Assembly: GCA_003153055.1 (NCBI GenBank)
Contig: PMBV01000329.1
Span: 1-11,953, forward strand
DNA length: 11,953 nt
Source: Myxococcales bacterium
GTDB lineage: Bacteria > Myxococcota > Myxococcia > Myxococcales > Myxococcaceae
Reading direction: 5' to 3'
Shown here: one piece after another, positions 935-11,953 of the stretch
Position numbering within the stretch: the first letter of the stretch is position 1
How the letters are laid out: the number at the start of each line of letters is the position of its first letter
Translations under genes and position numbers: made by a program
Notes under the pieces: generated by a model
The model's input: only the letters and a program-made list of their open reading frames with translations
Databases searched by the model: none
What the model was told of the DNA's origin: nothing

Positions 935-1768
935 ATGAGCATCGCGCAGTCACCACAGACGCTACTCCTGGGCGTCGACCTTGAAGACGTGCGCCTCCAG
1001 GTCCCAAATGGCGAGCGATATACCGATCGCGTACCTGCAATGACGCGAGAGTATCTCGCGCTCTTCCGCCGCTTCGGCGCGACAACGACGTTCTTCACCG
1101 TCGGAGAAGTGGCGCGAAGGCACCCGGCGCTTCTTCGAGAGATCGCCGACTCGGGGCATGAGATTGCCTGTCACACGAACACGCATTCGACGATCGACCG
1201 GCTGACACCGGCGTCCCTTCGTGAAGACCTCCAGCGGGCGCATGAGGCTTTTGAGGACGCTGGGGTTCCAAGACCGGTCGGCTTTCGAGCGCCCACGCTC
1301 TCACTCACAGAGAAGACCAGCTGGGCGTACGAGGTTCTCGGCGAAATGGGCTACGAGTACTCGAGCTCGGTGCTTCCGGCGCACAATCCTCTGTTCGGCT
1401 GGGCGGCCTTCGGAAAGCGGCCTCGACGCCAGTCATCGGTCGTGGAATTGCCCGTCTCCGTCCTTCCGCGAGTCGGGTTGCCTTTCGCGGCGGGCACGTA
1501 CCTGAGGGCTCTACCGACACCACTCATTGTGCTGGCGGCGCGCCTTCACGCGCGCCACCTCGGTCCGGTGGTCGGCTACGTGCACCCCTACGACATCGAC
1601 CTCGAGCAAGAGCGATTCATGCATCCGGGAATCAACGACTCCCGCTTCTACAATTGGCTCATGTACCACAACCGAGACACTGTGCTCGTCAAGTTGGAAG
1701 CGCTCTTGAATGCCGGTTTCGAGATGAAGAAGTACTCCACCTTCGTTCGAAGTGACCTGTGCCTATGA
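935..1768 (+). CDS. Polysaccharide deacetylase (NodB fold, XrtA/PEP-CTERM-locus type)
   Basis: This 277-aa protein is predicted to remove N- or O-acetyl groups from a glycan. The NodB-homology motifs are in order. An acidic LGVDLEDV motif lies at about 12-19, with catalytic and metal-binding Asp candidates D15 and D18. The metal-binding HxxxH lies at 80-84 within GHEIACHTNTH. GFRAPTLS (R118, P120) is at 116-123 and EYSSSV at 141-146. A late GYVHPYDID motif at 214-222 would supply the catalytic His (H217). The AAGTYLRALP segment (185-194) plus HPYDID matches the DUF3473-containing deacetylases found in exosortase/PEP-CTERM exopolysaccharide loci. No signal peptide is visible, so it probably acts in the cytoplasm, as those relatives are thought to. 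The start is supported by a strong Shine-Dalgarno (GAGGTGA, 924-930) four bases before the ATG. The substrate is unknown. The stop codon overlaps an ATG (ATGA) that opens a short truncated frame. Confidence 0.9.
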   Translation: MSIAQSPQTLLLGVDLEDVRLQVPNGERYTDRVPAMTREYLALFRRFGATTTFFTVGEVARRHPALLREIADSGHEIACHTNTHSTIDRLTPASLREDLQRAHEAFEDAGVPRPVGFRAPTLSLTEKTSWAYEVLGEMGYEYSSSVLPAHNPLFGWAAFGKRPRRQSSVVELPVSVLPRVGLPFAAGTYLRALPTPLIVLAARLHARHLGPVVGYVHPYDIDLEQERFMHPGINDSRFYNWLMYHNRDTVLVKLEALLNAGFEMKKYSTFVRSDLCL

Positions 1769-1842
1769 GCATCGAAGCTGGTCGACTCCTTTGGCCGCAA
1801 GTCGGACCAGAGCGAGCGTCGGCTCAACGCGCTCACACGTAG
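1765..1842 (+). pseudogene. Possible 5' stub of a lost gene, coupled to the deacetylase stop (ATGA)
   Basis: An ATG at 1765 overlaps the deacetylase TGA by four bases, the usual geometry for translational coupling. The frame begins MSIEAGRLLWPQVGPE and then stops at a TAG (1840-1842) after 25 codons. The first residues read like an ordinary protein start. The stop falls where the convergent GNAT gene begins to overlap (1833). I infer that the original downstream gene was cut off here by insertion or deletion. Chance is a real alternative, because ATGA overlaps occur randomly and 25 codons is short. Confidence 0.25.
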
Positions 1843-2909
1843 TCGTGGTCGAACCAGGTCAGATGCCAGTGGGGAAACGAGCTGGCGTCGAGCTGGAGCG
1901 TCGACGACTTGGGCCGGTGGACGACCAGCTTGAAGCTCTCCGACGTCTGCAGGAAGCCCGCTCGCGTCAGCAACCCACGGAAAGGCGAGTTCGGGTTCAG
2001 AATCGTCGCGACCAGGTCGGCACCTCCACGAATCGCCTCGCGCGTACATGCCCGCATGAGTTCGCGGCCTGAAGCGGAGTCGGCAGGGTCGTAAGCCATA
2101 TCAACCAGAGCCATGGCCTCGAGCCCCTTCATCTGGAGCTTGCGCAGTACCATGTACCCAATGACCACTCCTGCGCGCTTCGCAACGAAACAGGAGTAGG
2201 TGCGCGTGGACAACCCCTTGAAACGCCAGTTGAGGATCTCGGGGGTGCGCACGGCCATGGTCTTGAACCGCCCAGCGAGGCTCTCGAGCACCGGGGCCAG
2301 CGAGTGGTCGAAGCGGTCGACCTGCTCGACAGTGATCGACCGACTCGAAGGCAGCCATTGCCGAGTCAGCGCCCACCCTGCAAGCGTCAGCGGCAGCTTC
2401 CCCAGCGCCAGGGCCAGACCATTCTTCACGACCGTGGCAGCGACCCGGTTGAAGTTGATGGGCTTGGCGAACACCGGTACCTCGCCCAGTTTCTTCCAAC
2501 CCATGCGCAGGTGCGGCTCGAGCACGCCATCTCTGGTCACCAGCCCATAGGCGAAGGCGAGGTTCTTCTTCGGGTACTCTCTGAAGAAGTGGTTCTGCAG
2601 TGAGAAGAACAGGCTGCCCGTTCGGTTGGCCTTGTCAATCACCAGGTTCGAGGCAAAGCCGGCGACGACGCCCGCTTGAGTCTCGCCGCCCAGCTGAAAG
2701 GCGAACGGCAGCGCCCCATAATGGGCGATGACTGCCTCGCCCTCTTTCGCCACGAACTCCAGGTGGGTGCCGCTCGGAGTGTCGAAGTAGAGCCACTTCA
2801 GCATCGCCGGGAAGTTCTCGACCGTCAGGTCTTCGAGCAACAGATCGTTGCTCTTTGCCAGGGCTGCAACGGCTGGGAAATCGGCCTCTGTGACGTCCAC
2901 CATCTTCAC
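1833..2909 (-). CDS. Tandem GNAT-fold acyltransferase
   Basis: This 358-aa protein appears to hold two GNAT-like halves. The first (about 1-155) contains VVAGFASNLVI followed by a helix-rich NRTGSLFFSLQNHFF segment, a typical beta-4/alpha-3 region for acyl-CoA or acyl-ACP binding. The second (about 195-335) contains RTPEILNWRF (221-230), GVVIGYMVLRK, ALVDMAYDP and GADLVATILNPNSPFRGLLTRAGF. The C-terminus ends FPHWHLTWFDHDYV, a closing motif shared with GNAT proteins in exopolysaccharide loci. The GTG start at 2909 overlaps the ligase stop as GTGA; an in-frame ATG two codons later (2903-2901) is the alternative. It is the last gene of the operon, so I infer that it transfers the finished acyl group from an ACP or CoA to the amine or hydroxyl of the acceptor, perhaps a sugar. 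The acceptor cannot be read from sequence. Confidence 0.8.
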   Translation of the reverse strand: MKMVDVTEADFPAVAALAKSNDLLLEDLTVENFPAMLKWLYFDTPSGTHLEFVAKEGEAVIAHYGALPFAFQLGGETQAGVVAGFASNLVIDKANRTGSLFFSLQNHFFREYPKKNLAFAYGLVTRDGVLEPHLRMGWKKLGEVPVFAKPINFNRVAATVVKNGLALALGKLPLTLAGWALTRQWLPSSRSITVEQVDRFDHSLAPVLESLAGRFKTMAVRTPEILNWRFKGLSTRTYSCFVAKRAGVVIGYMVLRKLQMKGLEAMALVDMAYDPADSASGRELMRACTREAIRGGADLVATILNPNSPFRGLLTRAGFLQTSESFKLVVHRPKSSTLQLDASSFPHWHLTWFDHDYV

Positions 2910-4273
2910 GACTTGGGCTCCTCGAAGCCGCTGCGTTGCTTCTTGAACCGCTCGGTGTGCTGCGCGTCGGCGTCGACCAGAACGAAACGGAGGGGGATCT
3001 TGTACTTCGATAAGCGGGTCAGGCAGTGCGCGCGAAGTCGCTCAGTGACAGCCTCGGCAGATTCATCCGTCTCGAGCGAAATGCGGGCATGCACCACGTG
3101 GCCCATCAGAGGATGGGGCACGCCATACGCCGTGGCTTCCTTGATGTTCGGCGCCGACAGCAACACCGTCTCGACCTCCGCGGGGAAGACCTTCTGGCCG
3201 CCCACGTTGATCATGTCCGACTTCCGGCCAATGATGCGCATGTATTCCCCGCGCGTCTCGACCTGGTCTCCCGTGCACATCCACCCGTCGGCGTCGAAGG
3301 GGGTCGGCGCGTTGAGGTAGCCAACCATGTTCGCCTCGGAGCGCACCCACAGAATGTTGTCGACGACCTTGATCTCGAACCCGTCACCGCCAATCTTCAC
3401 CCACAACGAAGCGTCGTTCTCCGACTTCGAGCGCAGCACTCCCAGCTCCGAGAGGCCATAGGTCTGCTTGATCAGCGCCTTGGGAAAGATGCTGCGGACC
3501 TTCGCCAGCGTCGCTTCAGGCATGACCTCCGTACCGTAGGTGATGAGCTCGATCGACGAGAGGTCGAAGGCTCGGTAGGTCGACGAGGCGATGAGCAGGT
3601 TGATGAACGTGGGCGTGGTCGGCAGCAGCGTGGCCCTTCCGAATTGAATGGCCTCGCACACCGCCTTCGGGCTCCGGTCGGCAACGCACACGGCCGTACC
3701 GCCGTACGCAAAGGCACCCAGAAACGTGTTGAAGCCCCCAAAGTGGTCCATCAACAAGAACAGAATGGAACGCCAGCCCTGGCGCTCGACCGCGAACTTG
3801 CGCATCACGCGTTCACAGTCGTGGAGAATGCCCTTTGGCTTCCCAGTCGAGCCAGAGGTGAACACGACGAGGCCGGGGCTCTGGCGCTTCAAGAACTCGG
3901 TGACCAGCGCATTCGGCACAGGCGCGGGTAGCTTGCTGACCGAAACCTCATCGCTGGGGTCGACGGTGATGAGCACCTCGGCGCCTGCGATGGCGAGGAA
4001 AGCGTCGAGCTCGGCCTGCACCGCCCTGGTCAGCGGCACGATGATCGCGCGAGCCTTCATCAGGGCAAAAAAAAGCGAACAGGTCTTGGGAGAGAACTCT
4101 CCGAGCACTGCGCACACCGTGCCCGCCTTGATGCCGTGCTGTTCAAAGGCCACGGCCCAACCATCGACGCTGAGCAAGAAGTCGGTGTAGGACTGCTCAC
4201 GCCCGCGCCAGACGACGGCAGGCCGCGAGCCGTAGCCGGCCATTCGATCGAGTACTGTCTGAATCGCGTGCAT
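2906..4273 (-). CDS. AMP-forming acyl/aryl-acid ligase (ANL superfamily)
   Basis: At 455 aa this is a compact adenylate-forming enzyme. It is predicted to activate a carboxylic acid as acyl-AMP and load it onto CoA or the neighbouring ACP. The core motifs are clear: the P-loop FTSGSTGKPKG at 138-148, TYGLSELG at 271-278, WMCTGDQ at 331-337 and the hinge IGRKSDMINVGGQKVFPAEVE at 348-368. The C-terminal lysine motif is unusual. It reads TERFKKQR (440-447) where T-x-x-G-K-x-x-R is expected. The catalytic Lys (K444) and final Arg are kept, but the Gly is replaced by Phe. The protein is shorter than typical acyl-CoA synthetases (500-600 aa), which resembles stand-alone ligases that feed carrier proteins. 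A ribosome binding site (CGAGG, 4281-4285) sits seven bases from the ATG. The ACP-1 gene ends 20 bases upstream, which suggests direct loading of that ACP. The substrate is not predictable by eye. Confidence 0.88.
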   Translation of the reverse strand: MHAIQTVLDRMAGYGSRPAVVWRGREQSYTDFLLSVDGWAVAFEQHGIKAGTVCAVLGEFSPKTCSLFFALMKARAIIVPLTRAVQAELDAFLAIAGAEVLITVDPSDEVSVSKLPAPVPNALVTEFLKRQSPGLVVFTSGSTGKPKGILHDCERVMRKFAVERQGWRSILFLLMDHFGGFNTFLGAFAYGGTAVCVADRSPKAVCEAIQFGRATLLPTTPTFINLLIASSTYRAFDLSSIELITYGTEVMPEATLAKVRSIFPKALIKQTYGLSELGVLRSKSENDASLWVKIGGDGFEIKVVDNILWVRSEANMVGYLNAPTPFDADGWMCTGDQVETRGEYMRIIGRKSDMINVGGQKVFPAEVETVLLSAPNIKEATAYGVPHPLMGHVVHARISLETDESAEAVTERLRAHCLTRLSKYKIPLRFVLVDADAQHTERFKKQRSGFEEPKS

Positions 4274-4293
4274 CTGAGTTCCTCGCGCCAGTG

Positions 4294-4542
4294 CTACGTG
4301 GTGAAGACGACACCGTGCTCGCCGAGCACTTCTTTAATCAACGGAAAGCTGATGATCTCGAGCGACTGTTCTTCGGTCAAGGACACTTGAAACTGCTCTT
4401 CCAGCGCGAGCACCAGGTTCAAGTGCTTGAGAGAATCCCACCCGGGCACGTTGTCCATGGAGCTGTCGGCCGTGAGCGACTCCTCGGGCACACCGAACAC
4501 CTCAGCCAGCGTCTGCTTCAACTTCTGCTCACTAACCTGCAT
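4294..4542 (-). CDS. Acyl carrier protein (ACP-1), partner of FkbH
   Basis: This is an 82-aa stand-alone carrier protein. The phosphopantetheine attachment serine is S37 in VPGWDSLKHLNLV. The flanking acidic helices (VLALEEQFQVSLTEEQ) and the C-terminal helix (ISFPLIKEVL) complete a normal ACP fold. A longer reading from 4707 is open but only shadows the FkbH gene. The ATG at 4542 is fixed by a good Shine-Dalgarno (AGGAG, 4549-4553) six bases away. The gene starts 11 bases inside the end of the FkbH gene, so the two are translationally coupled and very probably partners. In characterised FkbH systems the glyceryl unit is placed on just such a small discrete ACP. A host phosphopantetheinyl transferase must activate it, since none is encoded here. 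Confidence 0.92.
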   Translation of the reverse strand: MQVSEQKLKQTLAEVFGVPEESLTADSSMDNVPGWDSLKHLNLVLALEEQFQVSLTEEQSLEIISFPLIKEVLGEHGVVFTT

Positions 4543-6361
4543 CGGTCGCTCCTGTTTTGAACTTGATCCACGCCGGAGGCGCGACTGGGGCTTGCACCTC
4601 GCGCTCCCAGACCTTGGTCTCGGTGGCCGTCTCGACGGGCTGAAACTGGTGCCCAGGGAAGAAGTCTTTGACCTGCGCATTCTTGGCGGTCGGCACGTAG
4701 CGCCCAACCACCTTGCGCGCGCCCTTCTTTTGGGCGCCGTGGTTGACGATGGTGCTCAGCAGGGCGTCTTCAACCCCCCGCCCGATGACCCGACAGCTGA
4801 GAAGGAAGCTGTCGATCTCGGCCACCGCCTGCGCGTAGGTCACGATCGCGACGCCCACCAAGCCCATATCTGCGACCTTGTCCTTGAGCCGCAGCGCGAA
4901 GACGTCAGCGCCGGGGTTCGACAGGAACGCGCGTATGTCGGCTTCGGTGTAGCGCCGGGTGGTGAGGTTGAACTGGTTGGTCTTCTGCGTCAACTGCGCC
5001 ACGCGGGGTATCTCGAGCTCGCTCGGGCGGCCGATGTCGACCTCGAGCTCGAGCTTCGCCAGAAACTCCTGCAGCGAACCCGAGGTGGCCTCGATTTGCT
5101 TTCGCTGCCGGTTGTCGCCGTACATCTCGTTGCGCCGCTGGTCTTCAGCCGAGAACGTCAACGAGTCGAAGAAGCCGCGACGCGTGAACTCGGCGCGAAA
5201 AGCTGACCCACTCTTGGGCATCTGAACGACCTCGACGTCCGGCAGATTCTCGCGCACGAACCCGGTCTCGAAGTCGCTGTCGTCGACGAAGACGAAACTG
5301 TCGAGGCCGATGTTGAGCTCGTTGGCGATGCGCCGGAGGTTGGTGACCTTGTCGTCCCAGTTGATTTGCCAGCTGGCGAAGTGCTTCTCACGCAAGAGCA
5401 TGTCCGGGTGCTCGCGCAGCACCTGCAGCACGTCGGCCAGATTGTTCTTGCTGCACAGCGCGAGAATCACGCCGCGGTCGTGGAGGTTCAGAATCTCCTC
5501 CTGGAAGGAGAGGAACGTCGACCCCGGGTACGAAGTGCCCAGCTTGATGCCACTCATCCCATCTTCCCCGATAACCCCACCCCAGAGCGTGTTGTCGCAG
5601 TCGAGGACCAGGCACTTCTTCGTCTTACCGCGCAGCGCCCGGAAGAACTTGCCCAGCTCACGCCCGATGGGAAGCAGCGCCTTCTGCGAGAGAGGCGCGC
5701 GCGCGAGGTGCCAGTGTCGATGGTCGAGGCAGTGCACCGAGCCGTGCGCCGCCACCAGACTCATGAGGTCCAGGACCGAGGTGCCGCCAGCCGCACGAGC
5801 CTCGTCGAGGAGCAGCTGGTTGAGCTGGATGATGGTCTGGGTCTGATACCCGGTCGACTGTCCATCGAGAATACCGAGCGTGGTCTCGGCGGGGAGTGGG
5901 AAGTTGTTGAAGACGACGGTCGCCTTCGAGTTCGCCCGAATCGCGCCGAGAAGCTCGTGCGTGTGCTGCCGAACGCGGTCGACCTCGGCGGCGATCTTCT
6001 CTTTCGAGCTGATGAACCGAGTGGTCAACGCGGGGCTGATGGTGTCGAGCCACTGCGCAACGAAGATGAAGTCGGGCTTGAAGTGGTAGAGCGCCGAGTC
6101 GGGGTTGAATACGTCAGCGGAGATCGAGTCGAAGTCGCCCACGTACAGCTCGGGGTGAACGCCCGCCTCGAAGGCCTCGACCGCAATGACCGGCAGCAGG
6201 GGCTCGATGGTGAAGTTGCGGAGCACCGCGATGCGATAGGTCGGGCGCTTCGAGACCTCAGGCGTCACCGTGCGCAGCTCATTCGCCGCGGAGGAGTACT
6301 GAGCATAGGTGCGCTGCTCGATGGTGGTGGCGAGCAGCTTGGCGAGTGAAGGGGGTAACAC
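4532..6361 (-). CDS. FkbH-like HAD-IIIC glyceryl-ACP synthase
   Basis: The length of 609 aa and the architecture match full-length FkbH-like proteins. An N-terminal SGNH-like region (about 40-235) contains VLRNFTIEPLLPVIAVEAF and VFNNFPLP. The HAD domain (about 249-400) has motif I LDCDNTLWGGVIGEDG (D254, D256, T258), motif II serine S304 in ALCSKNN, a lysine (K338) in WDDKVTNL and acidic motif FVDDSDFE (D360/D361). A C-terminal GNAT-like part (about 435-575) contains TNQFNLTTRRYTEADI and LSCRVIGRGVEDALL, both diagnostic of this family. Characterised members take 1,3-bisphosphoglycerate, remove phosphate and load a D-glyceryl unit onto an ACP. All HAD catalytic residues are present, so the enzyme should be active. 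The start is GTG, with Shine-Dalgarno AAAGGAG (6369-6375) spaced seven bases away. It ends overlapping ACP-1, its likely partner. Family assignment is secure; the exact acyl group is inferred. Confidence 0.93.
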   Translation of the reverse strand: MLPPSLAKLLATTIEQRTYAQYSSAANELRTVTPEVSKRPTYRIAVLRNFTIEPLLPVIAVEAFEAGVHPELYVGDFDSISADVFNPDSALYHFKPDFIFVAQWLDTISPALTTRFISSKEKIAAEVDRVRQHTHELLGAIRANSKATVVFNNFPLPAETTLGILDGQSTGYQTQTIIQLNQLLLDEARAAGGTSVLDLMSLVAAHGSVHCLDHRHWHLARAPLSQKALLPIGRELGKFFRALRGKTKKCLVLDCDNTLWGGVIGEDGMSGIKLGTSYPGSTFLSFQEEILNLHDRGVILALCSKNNLADVLQVLREHPDMLLREKHFASWQINWDDKVTNLRRIANELNIGLDSFVFVDDSDFETGFVRENLPDVEVVQMPKSGSAFRAEFTRRGFFDSLTFSAEDQRRNEMYGDNRQRKQIEATSGSLQEFLAKLELEVDIGRPSELEIPRVAQLTQKTNQFNLTTRRYTEADIRAFLSNPGADVFALRLKDKVADMGLVGVAIVTYAQAVAEIDSFLLSCRVIGRGVEDALLSTIVNHGAQKKGARKVVGRYVPTAKNAQVKDFFPGHQFQPVETATETKVWEREVQAPVAPPAWIKFKTGATDAG

Positions 6362-6374
6362 GACTGTGCTCCTT

Positions 6375-7592
6375 TCAGACCATCGCGATGCCGCCGCACA
6401 CGCGCAGCGTTTCGCCGGTGATGTGTACCGCGCCGGGGCTCAGAAGAAACTCGACGGCGTTGGCGATGTCTGCCACTTCAGCCAGGCGCCGCAGGGGGGT
6501 TTGCATCTTGGTGAGCATCTTGGCCTTGTCGGGCAGATTCGAGATCATGTCGGTTTTGGTCATGCCCGGCGCCACGAGGTTCACCCGCACTCCTTTGGGC
6601 CCGTACTCGACGGCGAGGGTGCGTGCAAACGCCGAGAGCGCGGCCTTCGTCGCCACGTAGGCCGACTGCTGGGCGGGAGGCACGCCATCGGTGAAGATCG
6701 ACCCGATGAAGACCAGCGAGCCGGTCTTGCGCGCGACCATGCCCGGGAGCACCGCCTGGGCGCAGTTGAACGCGCCGTGGAGCTGCACGTCGAGCTGGGT
6801 CTGAAAGGCTCCCCAGCTCAGCTCCTCGAACGGAGTGGGAATGGGCAGCGGAGCAGCGCAGTGAACGACGTGGTCGATGGGGCCGAACTCGCCCTCGCCG
6901 AAGGCCACCAGCTGCTTGACCTCGGCTTCGACGGCGACGTTGGCGTGCGCAGCCACCGCCTTGAGCCCCGCTGCTTTCAGCTCGTCTACCAGCGCCTTCG
7001 CCTCACTCTCACCACTGAGGTAGTTGACGACCACCTGGGCACCCTTCGAGGCGAGCTGTCTGGCGATGGCGGCGCCAATGCCCTTGCTGCCTCCGGTGAC
7101 GAGAACGACCTGCGCACGCTCGGTGGTCATCTCACGAGCCTCCTCTTTGACTTCGAGAACTTTGACATGGGACGTGCCCGTGATGAGCGCGTGCCCGTGC
7201 TGGTTGAGGACCTTGATCTTCAGAATGAGCACCCGCGTCGCGACCGACTTCTGATCGACCACGCCGGAGACGGTGATCGTGTCGCCGACGAAGGCGGGCA
7301 GCAGGAACTCGAGGGTCTGTGAGGTCCAGAGGGCGCCGCTGCCGGGGAGCAGCGTGCCGATGATCGTCGAGATGAACGACGACGAAACCATGCCGTGCAC
7401 GACGGGCCTACGAAACATGGTTCTGCGCGCGAACACTTCATCGACGTGCAGCGGGTTGTAGTCACCGGTCAGGCTCGCGAAGCTGTCGACGTCGGCCTGC
7501 GTGAGCGTGTGCTTGAGTTCTGCCTGGTCGCCCACTCGAATCTGGGCGAAGTCGAGGCTGAGCACTTTGACCTGCTCGCGGGCATAGCTCAC
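6375..7592 (-). CDS. Fused MaoC-like dehydratase and SDR reductase
   Basis: Two enzymes are joined in 405 aa. Residues 1-150 form a hot-dog MaoC/R-hydratase domain. The hydratase motif LTGDYNPLHVDEVFA (41-55) supplies the catalytic Asp44/His49 pair, and VVHGMVSSSFIS follows. Residues 158-405 are a FabG-like short-chain dehydrogenase with NAD(P) motif TGGSKGIG (166-173) and catalytic S298, Y312 and K316 (AYVATK). Two SDR signatures are altered. The NNAG motif reads HCAAP (244-248), and the usual catalytic Asn appears as Gln (Q270 in LDVQLHG). The Tyr-x3-Lys spacing points to a ketoreductase rather than a FabI-type enoyl reductase. Together the halves could reduce a 3-ketoacyl thioester and dehydrate it (or hydrate the enoyl). 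The GTG start overlaps the KAS III stop as GTGA. FkbH starts 13 bases after its end, its ribosome binding site touching this stop codon. Confidence 0.88.
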   Translation of the reverse strand: MSYAREQVKVLSLDFAQIRVGDQAELKHTLTQADVDSFASLTGDYNPLHVDEVFARRTMFRRPVVHGMVSSSFISTIIGTLLPGSGALWTSQTLEFLLPAFVGDTITVSGVVDQKSVATRVLILKIKVLNQHGHALITGTSHVKVLEVKEEAREMTTERAQVVLVTGGSKGIGAAIARQLASKGAQVVVNYLSGESEAKALVDELKAAGLKAVAAHANVAVEAEVKQLVAFGEGEFGPIDHVVHCAAPLPIPTPFEELSWGAFQTQLDVQLHGAFNCAQAVLPGMVARKTGSLVFIGSIFTDGVPPAQQSAYVATKAALSAFARTLAVEYGPKGVRVNLVAPGMTKTDMISNLPDKAKMLTKMQTPLRRLAEVADIANAVEFLLSPGAVHITGETLRVCGGIAMV

Positions 7593-8593
7593 GGCGCGTA
7601 CCAGCGAAGCACAGACGCACCGAACGTGAAGCCGGCGCCGACCCCGGAGATGACCACCACGTCGCCATGCTTCAGCTTCTTCTGCTCGTTCGCTTCACAC
7701 AGCGCGATGGCCATCGACGCCTCGGCGGTGTTGCCGATGTCGGCGACGTTCGTGTGGGTCTTCGTCATCGGCAACTTCATCTTGCCCATGAGGTACTGAA
7801 TCAAGTGCAGGTTCGCCTGGTGAAAGATGAAGAAGTCGACCGCCTCGACGCCAAGCTTCGCCTTGGCGAGCGCACGCTTGATCACCGTTGGCTGATATTG
7901 CACGACCTGTTTCCAGACCTCCATGCCGTTGATTTCGTAATAGTTGAGCGCTTGATCGATGTTGTCTGCGCGCATCGGAAAGCTCGAGCCACCTCCACGA
8001 ATGCGCACCGACTCGTAGACCTGGGTGTTCGAGAACACGTCGTGCGCCAGAAAGCCGAAGCCCGCAGGCACCCGGCCCAGCACCGCGGCGCCGGCGCCGT
8101 CTCCGAAGTAGAGGGAAGACTGAGGGTCTTTCCAATTCACGAAGCGCGACTGAAGCGCCGCGCCGATGACGACCGCGTGACTGAGGGTCGGGTCGCAGGT
8201 GAGCCGGTCTGCCGCCGTGTTCAAGCCGACTTGAAACGCGGTGCAGTTCGCCATCAGGTCGTAGGCGGCGGCGTTCTTCGTGCCCAGCAGTTGGTGCACC
8301 TTGCAGGCGAGCGCGGGCATCACATAGTCGGCCGTGAAGGTGCACCCCAGCACCAGGCCGACCTGCTCAGGTGAAACACCGGCGCGCTCGAGCGCCTGCT
8401 GGCTCGCCGCCGCGGACATGGCCGAGCAGGTCTCGGTGTCCTCGGCCACGAACCGTTGTCTGACGCCGGTCTTCTTCTCGATGGTGCCCGGCTCGAGACC
8501 TGCGCTCGTCTCGACGGACTCGTTGGTGACGAGCTTCTTGGGCACATAGGCCCCCATGCCCAGGATGCCGATGCCGGTGGTCGGTGCGTTCAT
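7589..8593 (-). CDS. Beta-ketoacyl-ACP synthase III (KAS III/FabH family)
   Basis: This 334-aa thiolase-fold condensing enzyme carries the full KAS III triad: Cys117 in DLMANCTAFQVGL, His258 in FIFHQANLHL and Asn288 in IGNTAEAS. The glycine-rich YFGDGAGAAVLG (162-173) and C-terminal GAGFTFGASVLRW are also canonical. It should accept a primer acyl group on Cys117 and condense it with a second acyl- or malonyl-ACP. The frame is open further upstream to 8710, but the ATG at 8593 is right because the sequence from NAPTTGIGILGMGAYVP onward is the normal KAS III N-terminus. It also overlaps the hydrolase stop as ATGA. No well-spaced Shine-Dalgarno is visible, so translation probably depends on coupling. 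KAS III-like enzymes next to FkbH and a discrete ACP are typical of tetronate clusters, but here it could equally be the elongating enzyme for a short modified acyl chain. Substrate selectivity is unknown. Confidence 0.93.
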   Translation of the reverse strand: MNAPTTGIGILGMGAYVPKKLVTNESVETSAGLEPGTIEKKTGVRQRFVAEDTETCSAMSAAASQQALERAGVSPEQVGLVLGCTFTADYVMPALACKVHQLLGTKNAAAYDLMANCTAFQVGLNTAADRLTCDPTLSHAVVIGAALQSRFVNWKDPQSSLYFGDGAGAAVLGRVPAGFGFLAHDVFSNTQVYESVRIRGGGSSFPMRADNIDQALNYYEINGMEVWKQVVQYQPTVIKRALAKAKLGVEAVDFFIFHQANLHLIQYLMGKMKLPMTKTHTNVADIGNTAEASMAIALCEANEQKKLKHGDVVVISGVGAGFTFGASVLRWYAP

Positions 8594-9291
8594 GTGGAAG
8601 CGGTATCTCCGAAGATGAAGTAGCTCGGCGCGGGACCGGTGAGACCCCTCCACCAGCTGCGAGCCTCGCCGATGGTCCAGGGGCGGCCGTGGCCAGGAAA
8701 GATGATGCACGCCTCGGGGAGGCCCTCGAGGAGCCGCGTCACCGAGACCTTGAGCGCCGCGGGGTCGCTCTCGGGGTAATTGCTTGGCCCGATGTGAGAG
8801 TGAAAGAGCGTGTCGCCCGTGAACACGAACGAGCCCTCGACGACATAGCTAACGCTGCCCGAGGTGTGCCCGGGCGTGGCCATCACCTGAACTGAATGCC
8901 CTGGCCAATCGAGGGCACTGGTCTCCGGTGCGAAGTAGGCGAGGCCGCGCGGGGCGCGCACCGCGGCGCGGGCGAAGCGGAACGCATACGTGCCAGCCTG
9001 CCGCACGAGGCGCTCCTCGAGCTTGTGCACCTGGGCGGTGATGCCAAATCGCAGGCCGAAGACTTCAGCTGAGGCCACGTGGTCGAAGTGACCGTGGGTC
9101 AGGGCGATGGCTCCCATCTGGTGAGCCTCGAGCTGCTCGGTGAGGAAGGGCTCTTCCATCCCGGGGTCTATCAGCAGGTGCTCCTGAGTCGGCTCGTGGG
9201 TCACCACGTAGCAGTTCTGCTTGAAGACGCTGTTGGTCAGCGTCGTCACCCGGTAGTCGCCAATTGCAATGGTCGGCCTCGCGACGCCCAT
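8590..9291 (-). CDS. Metallo-beta-lactamase-fold hydrolase (glyoxalase II/thioesterase-like)
   Basis: This 233-aa protein carries the complete metal-binding set of the fold. HGHFDH (66-71) gives H66, H68, D70 and H71. H142 lies in TPGHTSGS, D160 in FTGDTLF and H201 in IFPGHGRPW. These residues fit a two-metal hydrolase of the glyoxalase II type, which cleaves thioesters. No signal peptide is seen, so it should be cytoplasmic. In an operon of ACP-bound intermediates, I infer that it hydrolyses an acyl-ACP, either to release the product or to clear stalled intermediates. Some fungal polyketide systems use discrete MBL-fold thioesterases this way. It starts 9 bases after the SDR stop and overlaps the KAS III start by four bases. 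A lactonase or general glyoxalase II role remains possible. Confidence 0.85.
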   Translation of the reverse strand: MGVARPTIAIGDYRVTTLTNSVFKQNCYVVTHEPTQEHLLIDPGMEEPFLTEQLEAHQMGAIALTHGHFDHVASAEVFGLRFGITAQVHKLEERLVRQAGTYAFRFARAAVRAPRGLAYFAPETSALDWPGHSVQVMATPGHTSGSVSYVVEGSFVFTGDTLFHSHIGPSNYPESDPAALKVSVTRLLEGLPEACIIFPGHGRPWTIGEARSWWRGLTGPAPSYFIFGDTAST

Positions 9292-9300
9292 GCAGCCGCC

Positions 9301-10011
9301 CTAGTTCACGAGGCAGGTATGAAGAACCTGCCCGGTGACACAGCCGCTCTGGGGCGCCGTGAAGAACTGCACGATGTTACACAGCTCGGCCACGTCGATG
9401 GGGCGCTGGAGCGTCTGCATCGCCAGCATGTTTGCTTTCCATTGGTCTCCGAACGCCATGGACGCCTCGGTGCTCACGAGCGAAGGCGACACCACGTTAC
9501 AGGTGATGCCCTGGTTCGCGACCTCCCGTGCAAGGACCTTGGTGAACTCGACCACCGCAGCCTTGGCCGACGCATACGCGGGAGTGCCTGGAGCGTGCAG
9601 CTCTGTCATGATGGAGGTGAGGTTGACGATGCGCCCGTAGCGCTGGAGCCCCATGAGCTTCGAATACTCCCGGCACACCAGAAACGTCGTGGTGAGAATG
9701 GAGTTCACAAAAGCCTGAAAGCTTTCCAGCGTGGTGACACCGGTGAGGGCCCCTCGCTCGACCAGCCCGACGTTGCACACCAGCGCGTCAACCCGGCCAT
9801 GTTCACGCTTGACCCCACGCGCCCAGTCACGCACCTGCTTCTCGTCGGAGACGTCGACGCGAGAGTGGTGGTAGCCGGAGAGGTCGCCGAGGGTCGACTC
9901 TCCGCGGCTGCAGCCGATGACCGTCCACCCATGGGTCGCGAAGAACTCCGCCATGCCGCGCCCGATGCCGCGGCTGGTGCCCGTGATGACCATGACGTTC
10001 GAGGTGCTCAT
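9301..10011 (-). CDS. Short-chain dehydrogenase/reductase (FabG-like)
   Basis: This 236-aa protein is a classical SDR with a Rossmann motif TGTSRGIG at 10-17, a modified NNAG motif CNVG at 79-82, and the full catalytic tetrad N103, S133, Y146 and K150 (YASAK). FabG relatives reduce 3-ketoacyl-ACP with NADPH, and the operon context supports that role. The protein matches the sugar-nucleotide-modifying SDR group less well, as there is no long C-terminal extension. A clear Shine-Dalgarno (AGGGAG, 10018-10023) lies six bases from the ATG. With the SDR half of the fused protein there are two ketoreductase-type domains and no recognisable enoyl reductase. The two may act on different ketones, or this one may oxidise an alcohol. 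Confidence 0.88.
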   Translation of the reverse strand: MSTSNVMVITGTSRGIGRGMAEFFATHGWTVIGCSRGESTLGDLSGYHHSRVDVSDEKQVRDWARGVKREHGRVDALVCNVGLVERGALTGVTTLESFQAFVNSILTTTFLVCREYSKLMGLQRYGRIVNLTSIMTELHAPGTPAYASAKAAVVEFTKVLAREVANQGITCNVVSPSLVSTEASMAFGDQWKANMLAMQTLQRPIDVAELCNIVQFFTAPQSGCVTGQVLHTCLVN

Positions 10012-10054
10012 GCGCGTTGCTCCCTGCCGCCCGCCGGGGCGAGCTGACCTGGCC

Positions 10055-10354
10055 TTACGATGCGGCCAGCGAGACGAGGTACTCGGCGAACATGGCCCCC
10101 GAGAGCTGCGCAGCCCCGGGGTACTTGTCCTGGAGATCCGTCAGTACGATGTAGACGTCCTTGCCGGTCTTGCGATTGAGCCGCTCTTCGACGTCGGTGA
10201 TGAAGGTCACGAACCCCATTGAATCAAGGCTCGATTCCTGCCCGAGCAGCACTGCCCCGTCGCTCACTGGCAGGGCCGTTTCGATGAGGCCACTGCGCTT
10301 GAGACTGTCGATGGATTCCTGCATCAGGGCCATCACGTCACTTTTCGAAAGCAT
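10055..10354 (-). CDS. Acyl carrier protein-like protein (ACP-2)
   Basis: This 99-aa protein reads as a phosphopantetheine carrier with the attachment serine S45 in SSLDSMGFVTFITDVEERL. It differs from ACP-1: it is longer, has DSM instead of DSL, a longer N-terminal helix (residues 1-30) and a basic insertion (NRKTGKDV) after helix II. The frame is open further upstream to 10399, but those residues look non-coding. The ATG at 10354 begins the ACP-like sequence; ATGs at codons 8 and 11 are less likely starts. It is the first gene of the operon, 43 bases before the SDR gene. A possible hairpin lies just upstream. The early position suggests that it carries the chain processed by the SDR, KAS III and MaoC enzymes, while ACP-1 serves FkbH or the ligase. 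That division is inference. Confidence 0.82.
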   Translation of the reverse strand: MLSKSDVMALMQESIDSLKRSGLIETALPVSDGAVLLGQESSLDSMGFVTFITDVEERLNRKTGKDVYIVLTDLQDKYPGAAQLSGAMFAEYLVSLAAS

Positions 10355-10509
10355 TCTCGTTTCCCGTAGCACGCGGGTTCTTGGCTGTAAACCCGCCACA
10401 CGCCCACCGTCGTTCGGCCCGGAACTCGTAGAGACTCCGCTCCACCGGCTCCCTCCACGTGCCCTCCGCGCGGTTGCAAGGCGAGTGGCGATGGCATAGG
10501 CGACGCCGC
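10355..10509. promoter_or_regulatory. Divergent intergenic region between the acyl operon and the GtrA gene
   Basis: This 155-base gap separates the first gene of the minus-strand operon from the plus-strand GtrA gene, so promoters for both should lie here. I see no clear sigma-70 -35/-10 pair and no sigma-54 GG-N10-GC element. The best structural feature is the inverted repeat next to the ACP-2 start. The region is open on the - strand (frame ending at 10338) with no recognisable product. Confidence 0.45.
10373..10396. promoter_or_regulatory. Inverted repeat upstream of the acyl operon
   Basis: A perfect 7-base inverted repeat, GCGGGTT and AACCCGC, flanks a 10-base spacer, starting 18 bases before the ACP-2 start codon. 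No T-run follows on either strand, so it is not a classical terminator. It could be an operator for a dimeric regulator or a hairpin in the mRNA leader near the ribosome binding site. Confidence 0.4.
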
Positions 10510-10926
10510 ATGAATGACCCGCGGCGAGCGCTGCAAAAGACGACGCGCCAGGTCACCTCCTTCGGCCTCATCGGCGGCCTCGGAGCACTGACGAACGCCG
10601 GGGCCTATGCCGCCTGCATCTTTCTCGGCATGCAGTACCTCGTGGCGTTGGCCATTGCATGGGGCGCGTCCACGCTGCAAGGCTACTTGCTCAACCGCAA
10701 GTTCACCTTCCAGAGCTCGACGCCGGTGCGTCGCTCGCTCCCCAGAGTCGTCGCGGTGTACGTCGCCCAACAGGGGATCACCGCTGGTGGCATCTCGGTG
10801 CTCGTCGAGCGGTTCGGCGTCGGCCAGTTCCCCGCCTACCTGGTGATGGTGGGACCAGCAGTTCTCTTCAGTTTTCTGGCGATGCGCTTCTTCGCGTTCG
10901 CGCCACCCCAACGTGCACAGACCTGA
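10510..10926 (+). CDS. GtrA-family membrane protein
   Basis: This 138-aa protein has four predicted membrane segments at about 17-38, 42-60, 79-100 and 108-130. The motif GYLLNRKFTF (58-67), between segments 2 and 3, is the signature of the GtrA family. Members are small membrane proteins associated with surface-polysaccharide glycosylation, thought to flip or stabilise polyprenyl-phosphate-linked sugars such as undecaprenyl-phosphate-glucose. The start is placed at the ATG at 10510, where the basic N-terminus (MNDPRRALQK) precedes the first membrane segment; the frame is open back to 10459. No good Shine-Dalgarno is visible. The gene is transcribed away from the acyl operon and shares its upstream region with it. 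The usual partner glycosyltransferase is not adjacent in intact form; only a decayed family 2 glycosyltransferase lies downstream on the other strand. Confidence 0.85.
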   Translation: MNDPRRALQKTTRQVTSFGLIGGLGALTNAGAYAACIFLGMQYLVALAIAWGASTLQGYLLNRKFTFQSSTPVRRSLPRVVAVYVAQQGITAGGISVLVERFGVGQFPAYLVMVGPAVLFSFLAMRFFAFAPPQRAQT

Positions 10927-10987
10927 GGCAGCGAGCGATACGTCGGGGGCCTCGCCTTCGCAGGTGCGCACGCTGGTCACCGAAGGC

Positions 10988-11438
10988 TTACGCCGCCTCA
11001 TTCCGCAGGCGCGAAGGAGAACCGACCCTCGCTCGCCGGGTCCCGGAGAACAAAACCGCTCCCACGTGGAAGACGAAGGCGTGGTTGCAGCGGCCGATCC
11101 GGTAGCCGGCCACCCGCGCCCGCTGGCACCAATCATTCTCCCCGTTGTGGCCACGGCCACATGCGAGATCGAACCCCAGTTTCTCGAGCGCCGTGCGCCG
11201 CACGAGCAGGCAGAACCCGTGCGTAGTCGGCATCGCCGGGAACTGAGCGCGCCCCGATCGAGGCAGGGCCTGGGCGCGAAAGGCACCGGACTCGAGCGCC
11301 TCGGGCAGGCCCATCGCCGTGCGACCACATAGCGCAGCGGCGATTGAGATTGGGCGCCGTTCCCGTCGGGTACAACGGCGGGTCTTCCTCTCTCGGACGG
11401 CTCGCTCGCAGGCGCAGGGCTCCCGGCTCGGGGTTCAC
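10988..11438 (-). pseudogene. Decayed family 2 glycosyltransferase
   Basis: One frame (10988-11314) clearly encodes the C-terminal half of a GT-A glycosyltransferase: MPTTHGFCLLVRRTALEKLGF, then GRGHNGENDWCQRARVAGYR, which corresponds to the GxGxxEND-type acid/base motif, then AFVFHVGAVLFSG. Upstream of about 11314 this frame becomes arginine-rich and unlike the family. A second frame (open 11133-11438) continues the expected sequence with PPLYPTGTAPNLN. I infer at least one frameshift between about 11300 and 11370. The N-terminal nucleotide-binding half, including the DxD motif, is missing, and the C-terminus stops early (RLRNEAA). It lies antisense to and downstream of GtrA, consistent with a once larger glycan locus. 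Sequencing error could mimic the frameshift but not the missing N-terminal half. Confidence 0.65.
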
Positions 11439-11571
11439 CCCGGGCCAACTGCAAGAGTGCCCCTCAGCGCTCGGCAGAAGTAGGCCGGTCGAGAAGCGTT
11501 TCGTGCATCCGACGCACTCGATCGACCCTACGGACCGAGGAGAAACCCAGCGGCGTGCCCCCCGCGGCGAC
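11439..11571. other. Non-coding or degenerate stretch
   Basis: No intact gene is supported between the glycosyltransferase remnant and the methyltransferase stop. A short - strand frame (11464-11571) directly follows the methyltransferase TAG in the same frame and ends RMHETLLDRPTSAER before a TGA. It has no good start near its beginning and is too short to name. It may be leftover coding sequence from a decayed gene. Confidence 0.35.
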
Positions 11572-11953
11572 CTATGGCGCCGTCAGGACAAACTCGAGCT
11601 CGGTCGTATTTCCAGGGACCAGTCGATCGACCACAGCCACCGGCAGGGTCGCTAACAGGAGCAGGGGGTACACTCGCAAGTGCCCGCGAACAGGGGTTCT
11701 AAGCATCATCTTCATGTAATGCTCCAGGGTGAATGCCCACGCGCTCGGCAAGAAGGTCTTACGAAACAGCATCCCGGAGAACCCCCACCGTCTTGCCGCA
11801 ATTCTCAACCCGACAGCCGAAAACATCGCAGTGTGATACGGAAAGTGCAAGTAGCCCCAGTTTCGCCCGAACATACTGGCCGCTCTATGAGATGCGTTTG
11901 GTGTCAAGCCCCAAACTATTCCGCCCGGCTTCAACATACCCCTGAGCTGAGAC
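11572..11953 (-). CDS. SAM-dependent methyltransferase, C-terminal part (truncated by window edge)
   Basis: The frame is open across the right edge, so the N-terminus with the SAM-binding glycine motif lies outside the window. The visible 126 residues begin SQLRGMLKPGGIVWGLTPN, the usual post-catalytic LKPGG-strand of class I UbiG/Methyltransf_23-type enzymes. FGRNWGYLHFPYHTAMFS and RRWGFSGM follow, both typical of this group in polysaccharide clusters. The C-terminus carries a hydrophobic segment (VYPLLLLATLPVAVV) and ends naturally at a TAG. The ATG at 11937 lies inside the LKPGG strand and is not the start. The likely role is O-methylation of a sugar or glycan end. The acceptor is unknown. 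Confidence 0.82.
   Translation of the reverse strand, partial: SQLRGMLKPGGIVWGLTPNASHRAASMFGRNWGYLHFPYHTAMFSAVGLRIAARRWGFSGMLFRKTFLPSAWAFTLEHYMKMMLRTPVRGHLRVYPLLLLATLPVAVVDRLVPGNTTELEFVLTAP

What the first reader, a model, noticed from the sequence alone, without database searches (positions are those of the whole stretch)
1833..10354. Nine-gene operon that could build and transfer a glyceryl-derived or short modified acyl group
Seen: FkbH, two ACPs, KAS III, MaoC-SDR fusion, stand-alone SDR, MBL hydrolase, AMP ligase and tandem GNAT lie on one strand with gaps of 43 bases or less and several overlaps. Known: FkbH proteins load glyceryl from 1,3-bisphosphoglycerate onto a discrete ACP, and ANL ligases, KAS III, SDR and MaoC enzymes form acyl-thioester pathways. 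To my knowledge the Campylobacter flagellar glycosylation locus also combines FkbH-like, KAS III, ACP and ligase genes. Inferred: here the pathway makes a custom acyl side group that the GNAT places on a surface glycan encoded by the flanks. I do not recognise this exact gene set as a described system.
Basis: partly seen in the sequence, partly recalled or inferred. Interest (0 to 1): 0.8.

Follow-up and report, generated by a model that had tools for sequence, protein, structure and literature searches.

The report
Operon making custom sugar acyl groups
Nine tightly packed bacterial genes look like a small assembly line that turns a sugar-breakdown intermediate into a short decorated acid and hangs it on an amino sugar of the cell surface; much of the same set recurs in distant bacteria beside different sugar genes, so it seems to be a portable decorating module, not yet tested in the laboratory.

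Summary
The nine genes are real and lie where stated: minus strand, gaps 43, 9, -4, -4, 13, -11, 20, -4 bases. Corrections: ACP1 and the last protein match no Pfam or NCBIfam family (GNAT only through relatives; "tandem" untested). An Eremiobacterota genome has all nine in order. Without the last gene, usually with a methyltransferase, the set or most of it recurs in Omnitrophota, Bacillota, Chloroflexota, Bacteroidota and Pseudomonadota; a core trio, MaoC-SDR/FkbH/ACP2, occurs alone in more loci.
Best reading: FkbH loads glyceryl from 1,3-bisphosphoglycerate on ACP2; MaoC-SDR probably dehydrates and reduces it to lactyl; KAS III, the second SDR and ACP1 may extend it; an acyltransferase puts it on an amino sugar. 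Eight relatives have a PseH/VioB-like acyltransferase nearby, four of them with pseudaminic-acid or dTDP-sugar genes. In the window a new GNAT family takes that place; among its distant relatives N-deacetylases are enriched next door (12 of 87 adjacent genes, 5 of 551 others).
It works like the Pseudomonas viosamine island but starts from glycerate. N-lactyl and N-glyceroyl sugars are known structures. New variant of a known kind; product, enzyme steps and the window's acceptor are inferred.

The parts
10055..10354 (-). ACP1, 99 aa, first gene; probably carries the malonyl extender or growing chain (inferred)
   Evidence: no Pfam/NCBIfam hit; D-S motif in 7 of 7 aligned; 121 bits to L001 ACP1
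9301..10011 (-). stand-alone SDR, FabG-like 3-oxoacyl-ACP reductase, 236 aa
   Evidence: PF13561 148.4 bits, TIGR01830 147.2 bits, below its cut-off of 297.75; Y-K motif kept in the 9 aligned
8590..9291 (-). metallo-beta-lactamase-fold hydrolase, 233 aa; probable thioesterase (inferred)
   Evidence: PF00753 80.8 bits; THxHxDH kept in 11 of 11; present in 15 of 15 loci that have KAS III
7589..8593 (-). KAS III, FabH-type condensing enzyme, 334 aa
   Evidence: PRK09352 274.6 bits over cut-off 249; Cys-His-Asn in 11 of 11
6375..7592 (-). MaoC dehydratase fused to SDR ketoreductase, 405 aa
   Evidence: PF01575 71 bits and PF13561 197.5 bits; Asp44 and His49 invariant in 18 of 18; reductase Tyr kept in 15 of 18
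4532..6361 (-). FkbH-type glyceryl transferase/phosphatase with N-terminal extension, 609 aa
   Evidence: TIGR01686 292.6 bits, PF21211 35.6 bits; DxD motif in 22 of 22
4294..4542 (-). ACP2, 82 aa, acceptor of the FkbH product
   Evidence: PF00550 32.3 bits; WDS motif in 21 of 21; follows FkbH in most mapped loci
2906..4273 (-). AMP-forming acyl ligase (ANL), 455 aa
   Evidence: PF00501 134 bits, PF13193 43.5 bits; C-terminal Lys-containing motif kept in the 6 aligned that reach it
1833..2909 (-). GNAT-related N-acyltransferase of a small unnamed family, 358 aa
   Evidence: no family hit; 65 proteins in a capped search, itself included; profile matches enriched beside N-deacetylases
935..1768 (+). 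possible partner, opposite strand and tail to tail: XrtA/NodB-type polysaccharide deacetylase, 277 aa
   Evidence: PF01522 76.4 bits, PF11959 60.3 bits; TIGR03006 161.7 bits, below its cut-off of 276.2

Best explanation
The operon is a self-contained supply line for a short hydroxylated acyl group and its transfer to an amino sugar of a surface glycan. FkbH takes 1,3-bisphosphoglycerate and leaves glyceryl on ACP2 (from family knowledge). The MaoC-SDR fusion then probably removes water and reduces the resulting pyruvyl, giving lactyl-ACP2 (inferred, about 0.45). KAS III may condense that (or an acetyl starter) with malonyl on ACP1, and the stand-alone SDR reduces the ketone; with lactyl this would give 3,4-dihydroxypentanoyl (inferred, about 0.3). 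The MBL hydrolase is probably a thioesterase, and the ligase probably re-activates the freed acid or loads a further acid (inferred, weak). The last protein, a new GNAT family, places the acyl on an amino sugar. In several relatives a DegT aminotransferase is at hand to make the amine and the transfer enzyme is PseH/VioB-like; in the window variant the amino group may instead be freed by an N-deacetylase (inferred, about 0.4). Shown: gene content, order, conservation, intact catalytic residues, sugar-gene neighbours in relatives. Inferred: every chemical step and the acceptor.
For: Nine genes, same order, in L001. Of 41 stretches, 40 have a MaoC-SDR hit and 34 of these have FkbH in the same stretch; KAS III comes with MBL in 15 of 15. 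Pairwise identities of operon proteins rise and fall together, r 0.76-0.95 over 6-21 loci. Eight loci have a PseH- or Acetyltransf_3-type GNAT nearby: L005, L007, L010, L012, L016, L064, L179, L188 (the queries came from L007 and L064, and L012, L016, L179 and L188 match at only 47-61 bits). L064 has PseI 480.5, PseG 160.7 and PseH 105.7 bits, all over cut-off, with PseH between ANL and ACP1; L007 has RmlA and RmlB over cut-off and a DegT aminotransferase. The window GNAT profile lies beside an N-deacetylase in 12 of 87 adjacent genes against 5 of 551 others, 44 loci, P 7e-8. Eight of the first 23 MaoC-SDR proteins share longest-contig length and data source with a GNAT relative. Literature passages: viosamine island acyl supply by KAS III/reductase/ACP (PMC3927599); N-lactyl on Rha4N, Fuc3N and Pse, N-glyceroyl on Pse and Qui4N (PMC9912281) and on QuiNAc4N (PMC10609480); an FkbH loading unit listed as giving D-lactate-ACP (PMC7901079).
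Against: No enzyme step is tested. In three acidobacterial loci (L014, L015, L019) the reductase Tyr is Phe or Ala, so lactyl cannot be the universal product. L017 has MaoC-SDR and ACP2 without FkbH; its genome has one on another contig. The window deacetylase is on the other strand, and among its 120 best relatives no contig over 4 kb has the same length as one with a GNAT relative (compared by eye; a weak test, since the window's own pair is not recovered by it either); the closest full locus, L001, has only a PIG-L deacetylase 13 genes from the GNAT. 32 of the 44 loci have no deacetylase beside the GNAT by my profiles, and 9 of 43 other neighbours scanned are YqeY. L014, L017 and L019 have deacetylase plus DegT and NeuB-like hits, so the two amine sources are not exclusive; L018, L020 and L189 have a deacetylase with neither acyltransferase type recognised. 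Lower-scoring KAS III relatives in L062 and L102 have no MBL. L005 and L004 lack the ligase. Equal contig length is not proof: one such pair, L026 and L101, shared none of the 60-base probes tried. The window itself shows no amino-sugar genes. The PDB profile search of the GNAT gave nothing below E 0.034.
Confidence: 0.62

Rival explanations
1. Glyceryl itself (or a methylated glyceryl) is the transferred group; MaoC-SDR and KAS III serve a second, separate acyl such as 3-hydroxybutyryl.
For: N-glyceroyl Pse and Qui4N (PMC9912281) and N-glyceroyl QuiNAc4N (PMC10609480) exist; di-O-methylglyceric pseudaminic acid in Campylobacter (PMC3958885); a SAM methyltransferase sits in 10 of the 13 other KAS III loci, and for L006 on its companion L064.
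Against: MaoC-SDR stays with FkbH and ACP2 in many loci where KAS III is absent, which ties it to the glyceryl carrier; window and L001 have no methyltransferase of that type.
Confidence: 0.25
2. A small-molecule pathway of tetronate type: KAS III condenses glyceryl-ACP with a beta-ketoacyl thioester and releases a ring.
For: FkbH, stand-alone ACP and a FabH-like enzyme are the heart of the glycerate-utilisation operon (PMC7489565).
Against: The window KAS III is FabH-type (274.6 bits, cut-off 249), while the KAS III of a plasmid locus with tetronate-like gene content (L192; assigned by its neighbours only) scores 155 and aligns with the window's at 28% over 184 residues. No Agg4/Agg5-type partner or PKS was named among the window proteins scanned; several relatives lie in sugar loci.
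Confidence: 0.06
3. The operon makes an acyl for a membrane or outer lipid, not a glycan.
For: KAS III, SDR, MaoC, ACP and ligase are also fatty-acid enzymes.
Against: PseI/PseG/PseH, RmlA/RmlB, DegT, a Wzt-related ABC subunit and glycosyltransferases accompany several relatives; I did not search the loci for lipid genes as such.
Confidence: 0.05

Closest known systems
Viosamine island of Pseudomonas syringae (vioA, vioB, vioT, vioM, vioS, vioR, acp) and its counterpart in P. aeruginosa PAK (PMC3927599, passages)
   Same: dedicated KAS III, 3-oxoacyl-ACP reductase and ACP make a short hydroxyacyl that an N-acyltransferase puts on an amino sugar; deleting vioR removes the modified sugar
   Different: no FkbH, MaoC-SDR, MBL or ligase among the genes named in the passages; the window lacks VioA/VioB/VioT-type genes and has another acyltransferase family
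Flagellin glycosylation islands of Enterobacteriaceae (PMC4875605, section 9 read) and Aeromonas (PMC7874193, passages)
   Same: ACP, 3-oxoacyl-ACP reductase and AMP-forming ligase within pseudaminic-acid or flagellin sugar islands
   Different: FkbH and MaoC-SDR not mentioned in what I saw; LuxC/LuxE genes instead
Glycerate-utilisation (tetronate) operon (PMC7489565, passages)
   Same: FkbH plus discrete ACP plus FabH-like enzyme
   Different: other KAS III type, an acyltransferase/dehydratase pair and a PKS, which the window lacks
Methoxymalonyl-ACP extender operon of FK520 type (PMC7489565, passages)
   Same: glyceryl-ACP made by FkbH and modified on the carrier
   Different: needs two dehydrogenases and an O-methyltransferase; the window has a dehydratase-ketoreductase fusion instead
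FkbH loading units of the FR901464 and oocydin synthases (PMC7901079; PMC4552970; passages)
   Same: FkbH unit listed as giving D-lactate-ACP; oocydin module order DH-MT-FkbH-ACP resembles MaoC-SDR/MT/FkbH/ACP2 of relatives
   Different: parts of large polyketide synthases; the oocydin authors think their module not functional
Campylobacter flagellar glycosylation locus (gene content recalled, not checked)
   Same: glyceric-acid derivative on pseudaminic acid (PMC3958885, passage)
   Different: gene-level comparison not made here

Membership tests
FkbH family (TIGR01686) | profile score over curated cut-off, DxD motif | tested here: met
   292.6 bits against 146.65; LDCDNTLWGG, DxD in 22 of 22 aligned loci
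FkbH family (TIGR01686) | loads glyceryl from 1,3-bisphosphoglycerate | not testable with these tools
   needs biochemistry
Viosamine-island-type acyl supply | KAS III + 3-oxoacyl-ACP reductase + ACP together | tested here: met
   (the reductase is FabG-like but below the TIGR01830 cut-off)
Viosamine-island-type acyl supply | VioB/PseH-type N-acyltransferase and VioA/DegT aminotransferase | tested here: not met
   no hit in the window's 12 kb or L001's 21 kb with the L007/L064 proteins as queries; acyltransferase found in eight relatives
Tetronate glycerate-utilisation operon | FkbH plus discrete ACP | tested here: met
Tetronate glycerate-utilisation operon | tetronate-type KAS III, Agg4/Agg5-like partners | tested here: not met
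   FabH-type score against L192 (L192 assigned by neighbours only); no such partner named among the window proteins scanned
Methoxymalonyl-ACP operon | two dehydrogenases acting on glyceryl-ACP and an O-methyltransferase | tested here: not met
   no acyl-CoA or 3-hydroxyacyl-CoA dehydrogenase match in the nine proteins or the five flanking frames scanned; the only methyltransferase is a cut-off frame at the far end, below cut-off
Campylobacter flagellar acyl locus | shared gene set with the Cj1299-Cj1308 region (recalled) | not tested
   no annotated Campylobacter record searched; listings showed no gene-level description that I opened
GNAT superfamily (last protein) | GNAT fold, tandem copies | tested here: inconclusive
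   no family hit; relatives hit PF13527/PF13508/PF00583; structure prediction off
XrtA polysaccharide deacetylase (TIGR03006) | score over curated cut-off | tested here: not met
   161.7 bits against 276.2; same superfamily, PF01522 and PF11959 over cut-off

The most novel reading that the evidence does not exclude
MaoC-SDR, FkbH and ACP2 are a free-standing lactyl-ACP synthase that feeds glycolytic carbon into N-acyl groups of surface sugars, extended in the long operon by KAS III to a dihydroxypentanoyl group. The trio is a portable module with exchangeable delivery heads: PseH/VioB-like enzymes acting on DegT-made amines, or, as in the window, a new GNAT family that re-acylates an amine freed by an N-deacetylase, in the manner of NodB and NodA.
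Probability: 0.28. Interest if true: 0.75.

Novelty: new variant of a known kind. Interest (0 to 1): 0.55.

Why it matters
N-lactyl and N-glyceroyl groups on Pse, Fuc3N, Rha4N and Qui4N-type sugars are known from structures (PMC9912281, PMC10609480, passages). I saw no gene assignment for them in the listings and passages from the searches, which cover open-licence papers only and were read in part. This gene set gives a candidate that can be tested gene by gene, and a marker trio for predicting such groups in genomes. If the reductive route from 1,3-bisphosphoglycerate to lactyl-ACP holds outside polyketide synthases, it links glycolysis to surface decoration. The swap between PseH-like enzymes and the new GNAT family would show how one acyl supply serves different sugars.

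Tried and rejected
Tetronate and methoxymalonyl pathways: considered and put low (see rivals and membership). Structure of the GNAT: prediction was off; a PDB profile search gave 12 matches, mostly N-myristoyltransferases and aminoglycoside 2'-N-acetyltransferases, at E 0.034-0.92, not significant. Taxon of the window: no genome held; relatives hint at Eremiobacterota but this is not established. RNA genes: none found. Plasmid collection: MaoC-SDR no match at E 1e-40; FkbH 73 records, all under 60% identity. Virus collection: 3 partial MaoC-SDR relatives, not followed. FkbH (TIGR01686) rang in 0 of 14 control genomes.

Rows dropped: of the 45 loci, L028-L045 (18) match only part of the fusion, with low scores, and were left out. 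One search counted 41 rows: the window, L001-L027, L064 and the 12 loci. Of the 13 new genomes that cover most of the fusion, G1438 (partial) was not fetched; 29 other Bacteroidota matches cover only the SDR half. For one search I used 44 loci: window, L001, L062, L063 and the 40. These 40 are 35 of the 50 matches (those covering more of the profile were favoured), 3 of 4 and 2 of 6; L061 (contig of 4.4 kb) and the trio loci L013-L019 were not in it. The deacetylase profiles were seeded from the window, L063, L015 (PF01522 type) and L062, L001 (PIG-L type), a mild circularity, and related loci are not independent. Head type against deacetylase: 6 of 7 GNAT-family loci (L013, a short contig, lacks it) against 0 of 8 PseH-type loci; P about 0.0014 worked by hand, again not independent (four of the seven are acidobacterial). 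One search ended in a script error after printing what I cite. The equal contig lengths of L026 and L101 looked like a link but the 60-base probes tried did not match.
Full report
Observation. The window carries nine minus-strand genes in one run, with junctions of 43, 9, -4, -4, 13, -11, 20 and -4 bases. Pfam names seven of the nine. FkbH and KAS III pass curated NCBIfam cut-offs. ACP1 and the last protein match no family; ACP1 is recognised by its D-S motif and position, the last protein by GNAT matches among relatives. GC content is even, 0.61-0.68, so base composition does not mark the operon as foreign.

Conservation. A scan of named genomes with the MaoC-SDR family gave 45 loci; 27 were kept for mapping. 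L001, an Eremiobacterota genome, has all nine genes in the same order. The long set without the last gene, usually with a SAM methyltransferase, occurs in Omnitrophota (L005, without the ligase), Anaerosolibacter (L007), Chloroflexi (L010), a bin labelled Chryseobacterium (L016) and Rhodospirillales (L025, in two divergent halves cut by the contig ends), and in two genomes drawn from the phyla of the Polynucleobacter and Chryseobacterium loci (L179, without the methyltransferase, and L188). The trio MaoC-SDR, FkbH, ACP2 stands without KAS III in more loci. In one search, 34 of 40 stretches with MaoC-SDR also have FkbH; of the six without, L003, L021 and L183 are cut by contig ends, L006 has its partner on L064, L017 lacks it locally and L024 has only the MaoC half. 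KAS III came with MBL in 15 of 15. Identities of operon proteins correlate, r 0.76-0.95. The fusion is rare: at E 1e-75, full-length matches in 12 of 398 genomes of the Polynucleobacter phylum, 3 of 296 of the Chryseobacterium phylum (33 matched, 29 only in the SDR half and one partly) and 1 of 299 of the Anaerosolibacter phylum, each sample including one or two genomes already known to have it. In Polynucleobacter the operon seems to be split at a contig break beside transposase-like frames: MT-FkbH-ACP2-ANL-PseH-ACP1-SDR end one contig (L064) and MBL-KAS III-MaoC-SDR begin another (L006); that the two ends belong together is my inference.

Acceptor sugars. In L064, PseI, PseG and PseH pass their cut-offs and PseH lies inside the operon. 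L007 has RmlA and RmlB over cut-off, a DegT aminotransferase and a small GNAT, the gene logic of viosamine. L010 has PseH, PseG and PseI relatives, L005 PseH and PseG relatives. L016 has an ABC subunit related to Wzt and a PseH-like protein, both below cut-off. So the acyl supply is constant while the acceptor genes change.

The window variant. By the queries the window and L001 lack PseH/VioB-type and DegT genes and the methyltransferase, and they end in the new GNAT family. A capped search of a very large protein set gave 65 proteins of that family, itself included. Eight of the first 23 MaoC-SDR proteins share longest-contig length and source with one of them, which suggests that the form with the GNAT is a clade; equal lengths alone can mislead. 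The family profile matched 6 of 149 genomes of L001's phylum, 48 of 396 of an acidobacterial sample and 4 of 301 of a Chloroflexota sample. Over 44 fetched loci an N-deacetylase (PF01522 or PIG-L type) was the next gene in 12 of 87 adjacent positions against 5 of 551 others. In trio loci L014, L015, L017 and L019 a relative of the GNAT is followed directly by a deacetylase. This suggests deacetylation followed by re-acylation. But the closest relatives do not show it well: L001 has its PIG-L gene 13 genes away, the 120 best relatives of the window deacetylase share no contig length over 4 kb with the GNAT list (weak test), and many distant GNAT relatives have unrelated neighbours.

Chemistry. 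The catalytic motifs checked are intact in the window. FkbH to glyceryl-ACP follows from the family. That MaoC-SDR acts on glyceryl-ACP2 is inferred from its steady company with FkbH and ACP2, also without KAS III. Dehydration and reduction of glyceryl would give lactyl; a published table lists an FkbH loading unit as giving D-lactate-ACP and cites the FR901464 work (PMC7901079, passage), and I recall bryostatin as a further case (not checked). Against a universal lactyl product, three of 18 aligned MaoC-SDR proteins lack the reductase Tyr. KAS III, SDR and ACP1 resemble vioS, vioR and acp of the viosamine island, where loss of vioR removes the modified sugar (PMC3927599, passages). The roles of MBL and ANL are guesses.

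Known and new. N-lactyl, N-glyceroyl and 3,5-dihydroxyhexanoyl sugars are known structures (PMC9912281; PMC10609480; PMC3210612; passages only). I saw no description of this gene set in the listings of searches of an open-licence library, nor in the passages opened. It works like the viosamine island but is not a member of it, since its acyltransferase and aminotransferase are missing from the window and FkbH/MaoC-SDR are added. I therefore call it a new variant of a known kind.

Noticed in passing
window 10927-11570, minus strand: A GT2-like C-terminal piece (10988-11314) without an intact upstream part in any of the three frames; looks like a broken glycosyltransferase remnant (no Pfam match, by eye). 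A cut-off methyltransferase-like frame lies at 11572-11952.
   Followed up: partly
window 10459-10926, plus strand: GtrA-type membrane protein (PF04138, 65.7 bits) divergent from the operon.
   Followed up: no
L001 6261-7232: A 4'-phosphopantetheinyl transferase (PF01648, 69.1 bits) lies directly upstream of ACP1, fitting a need to charge the ACPs.
   Followed up: partly
L006 67-1217 and end of L064: Transposase-like frames (by eye) where the Polynucleobacter operon is split between two contigs.
   Followed up: partly
L180-L187: A second group with MaoC-SDR, one or more extra frames, then FkbH and ACP2 (L183 is cut by its contig end); contents not annotated.
   Followed up: no
L190 and L191: FkbH and ACP beside an MBOAT acyltransferase, in Sinorhizobium meliloti pSymB near capsule export genes and in a Rhodobacteraceae plasmid: perhaps O-glyceroylation of polysaccharide.
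   Followed up: no
L192 7739-11738: KAS III, FkbH, ACP and a 2-oxo acid dehydrogenase E2 protein on a Pseudalkalibacillus plasmid: looks like a tetronate-type operon in Bacillota.
   Followed up: partly
L014, L015, L019 MaoC-SDR: The reductase Tyr is replaced by Phe or Ala in the acidobacterial form, so its SDR half may be inactive.
   Followed up: no
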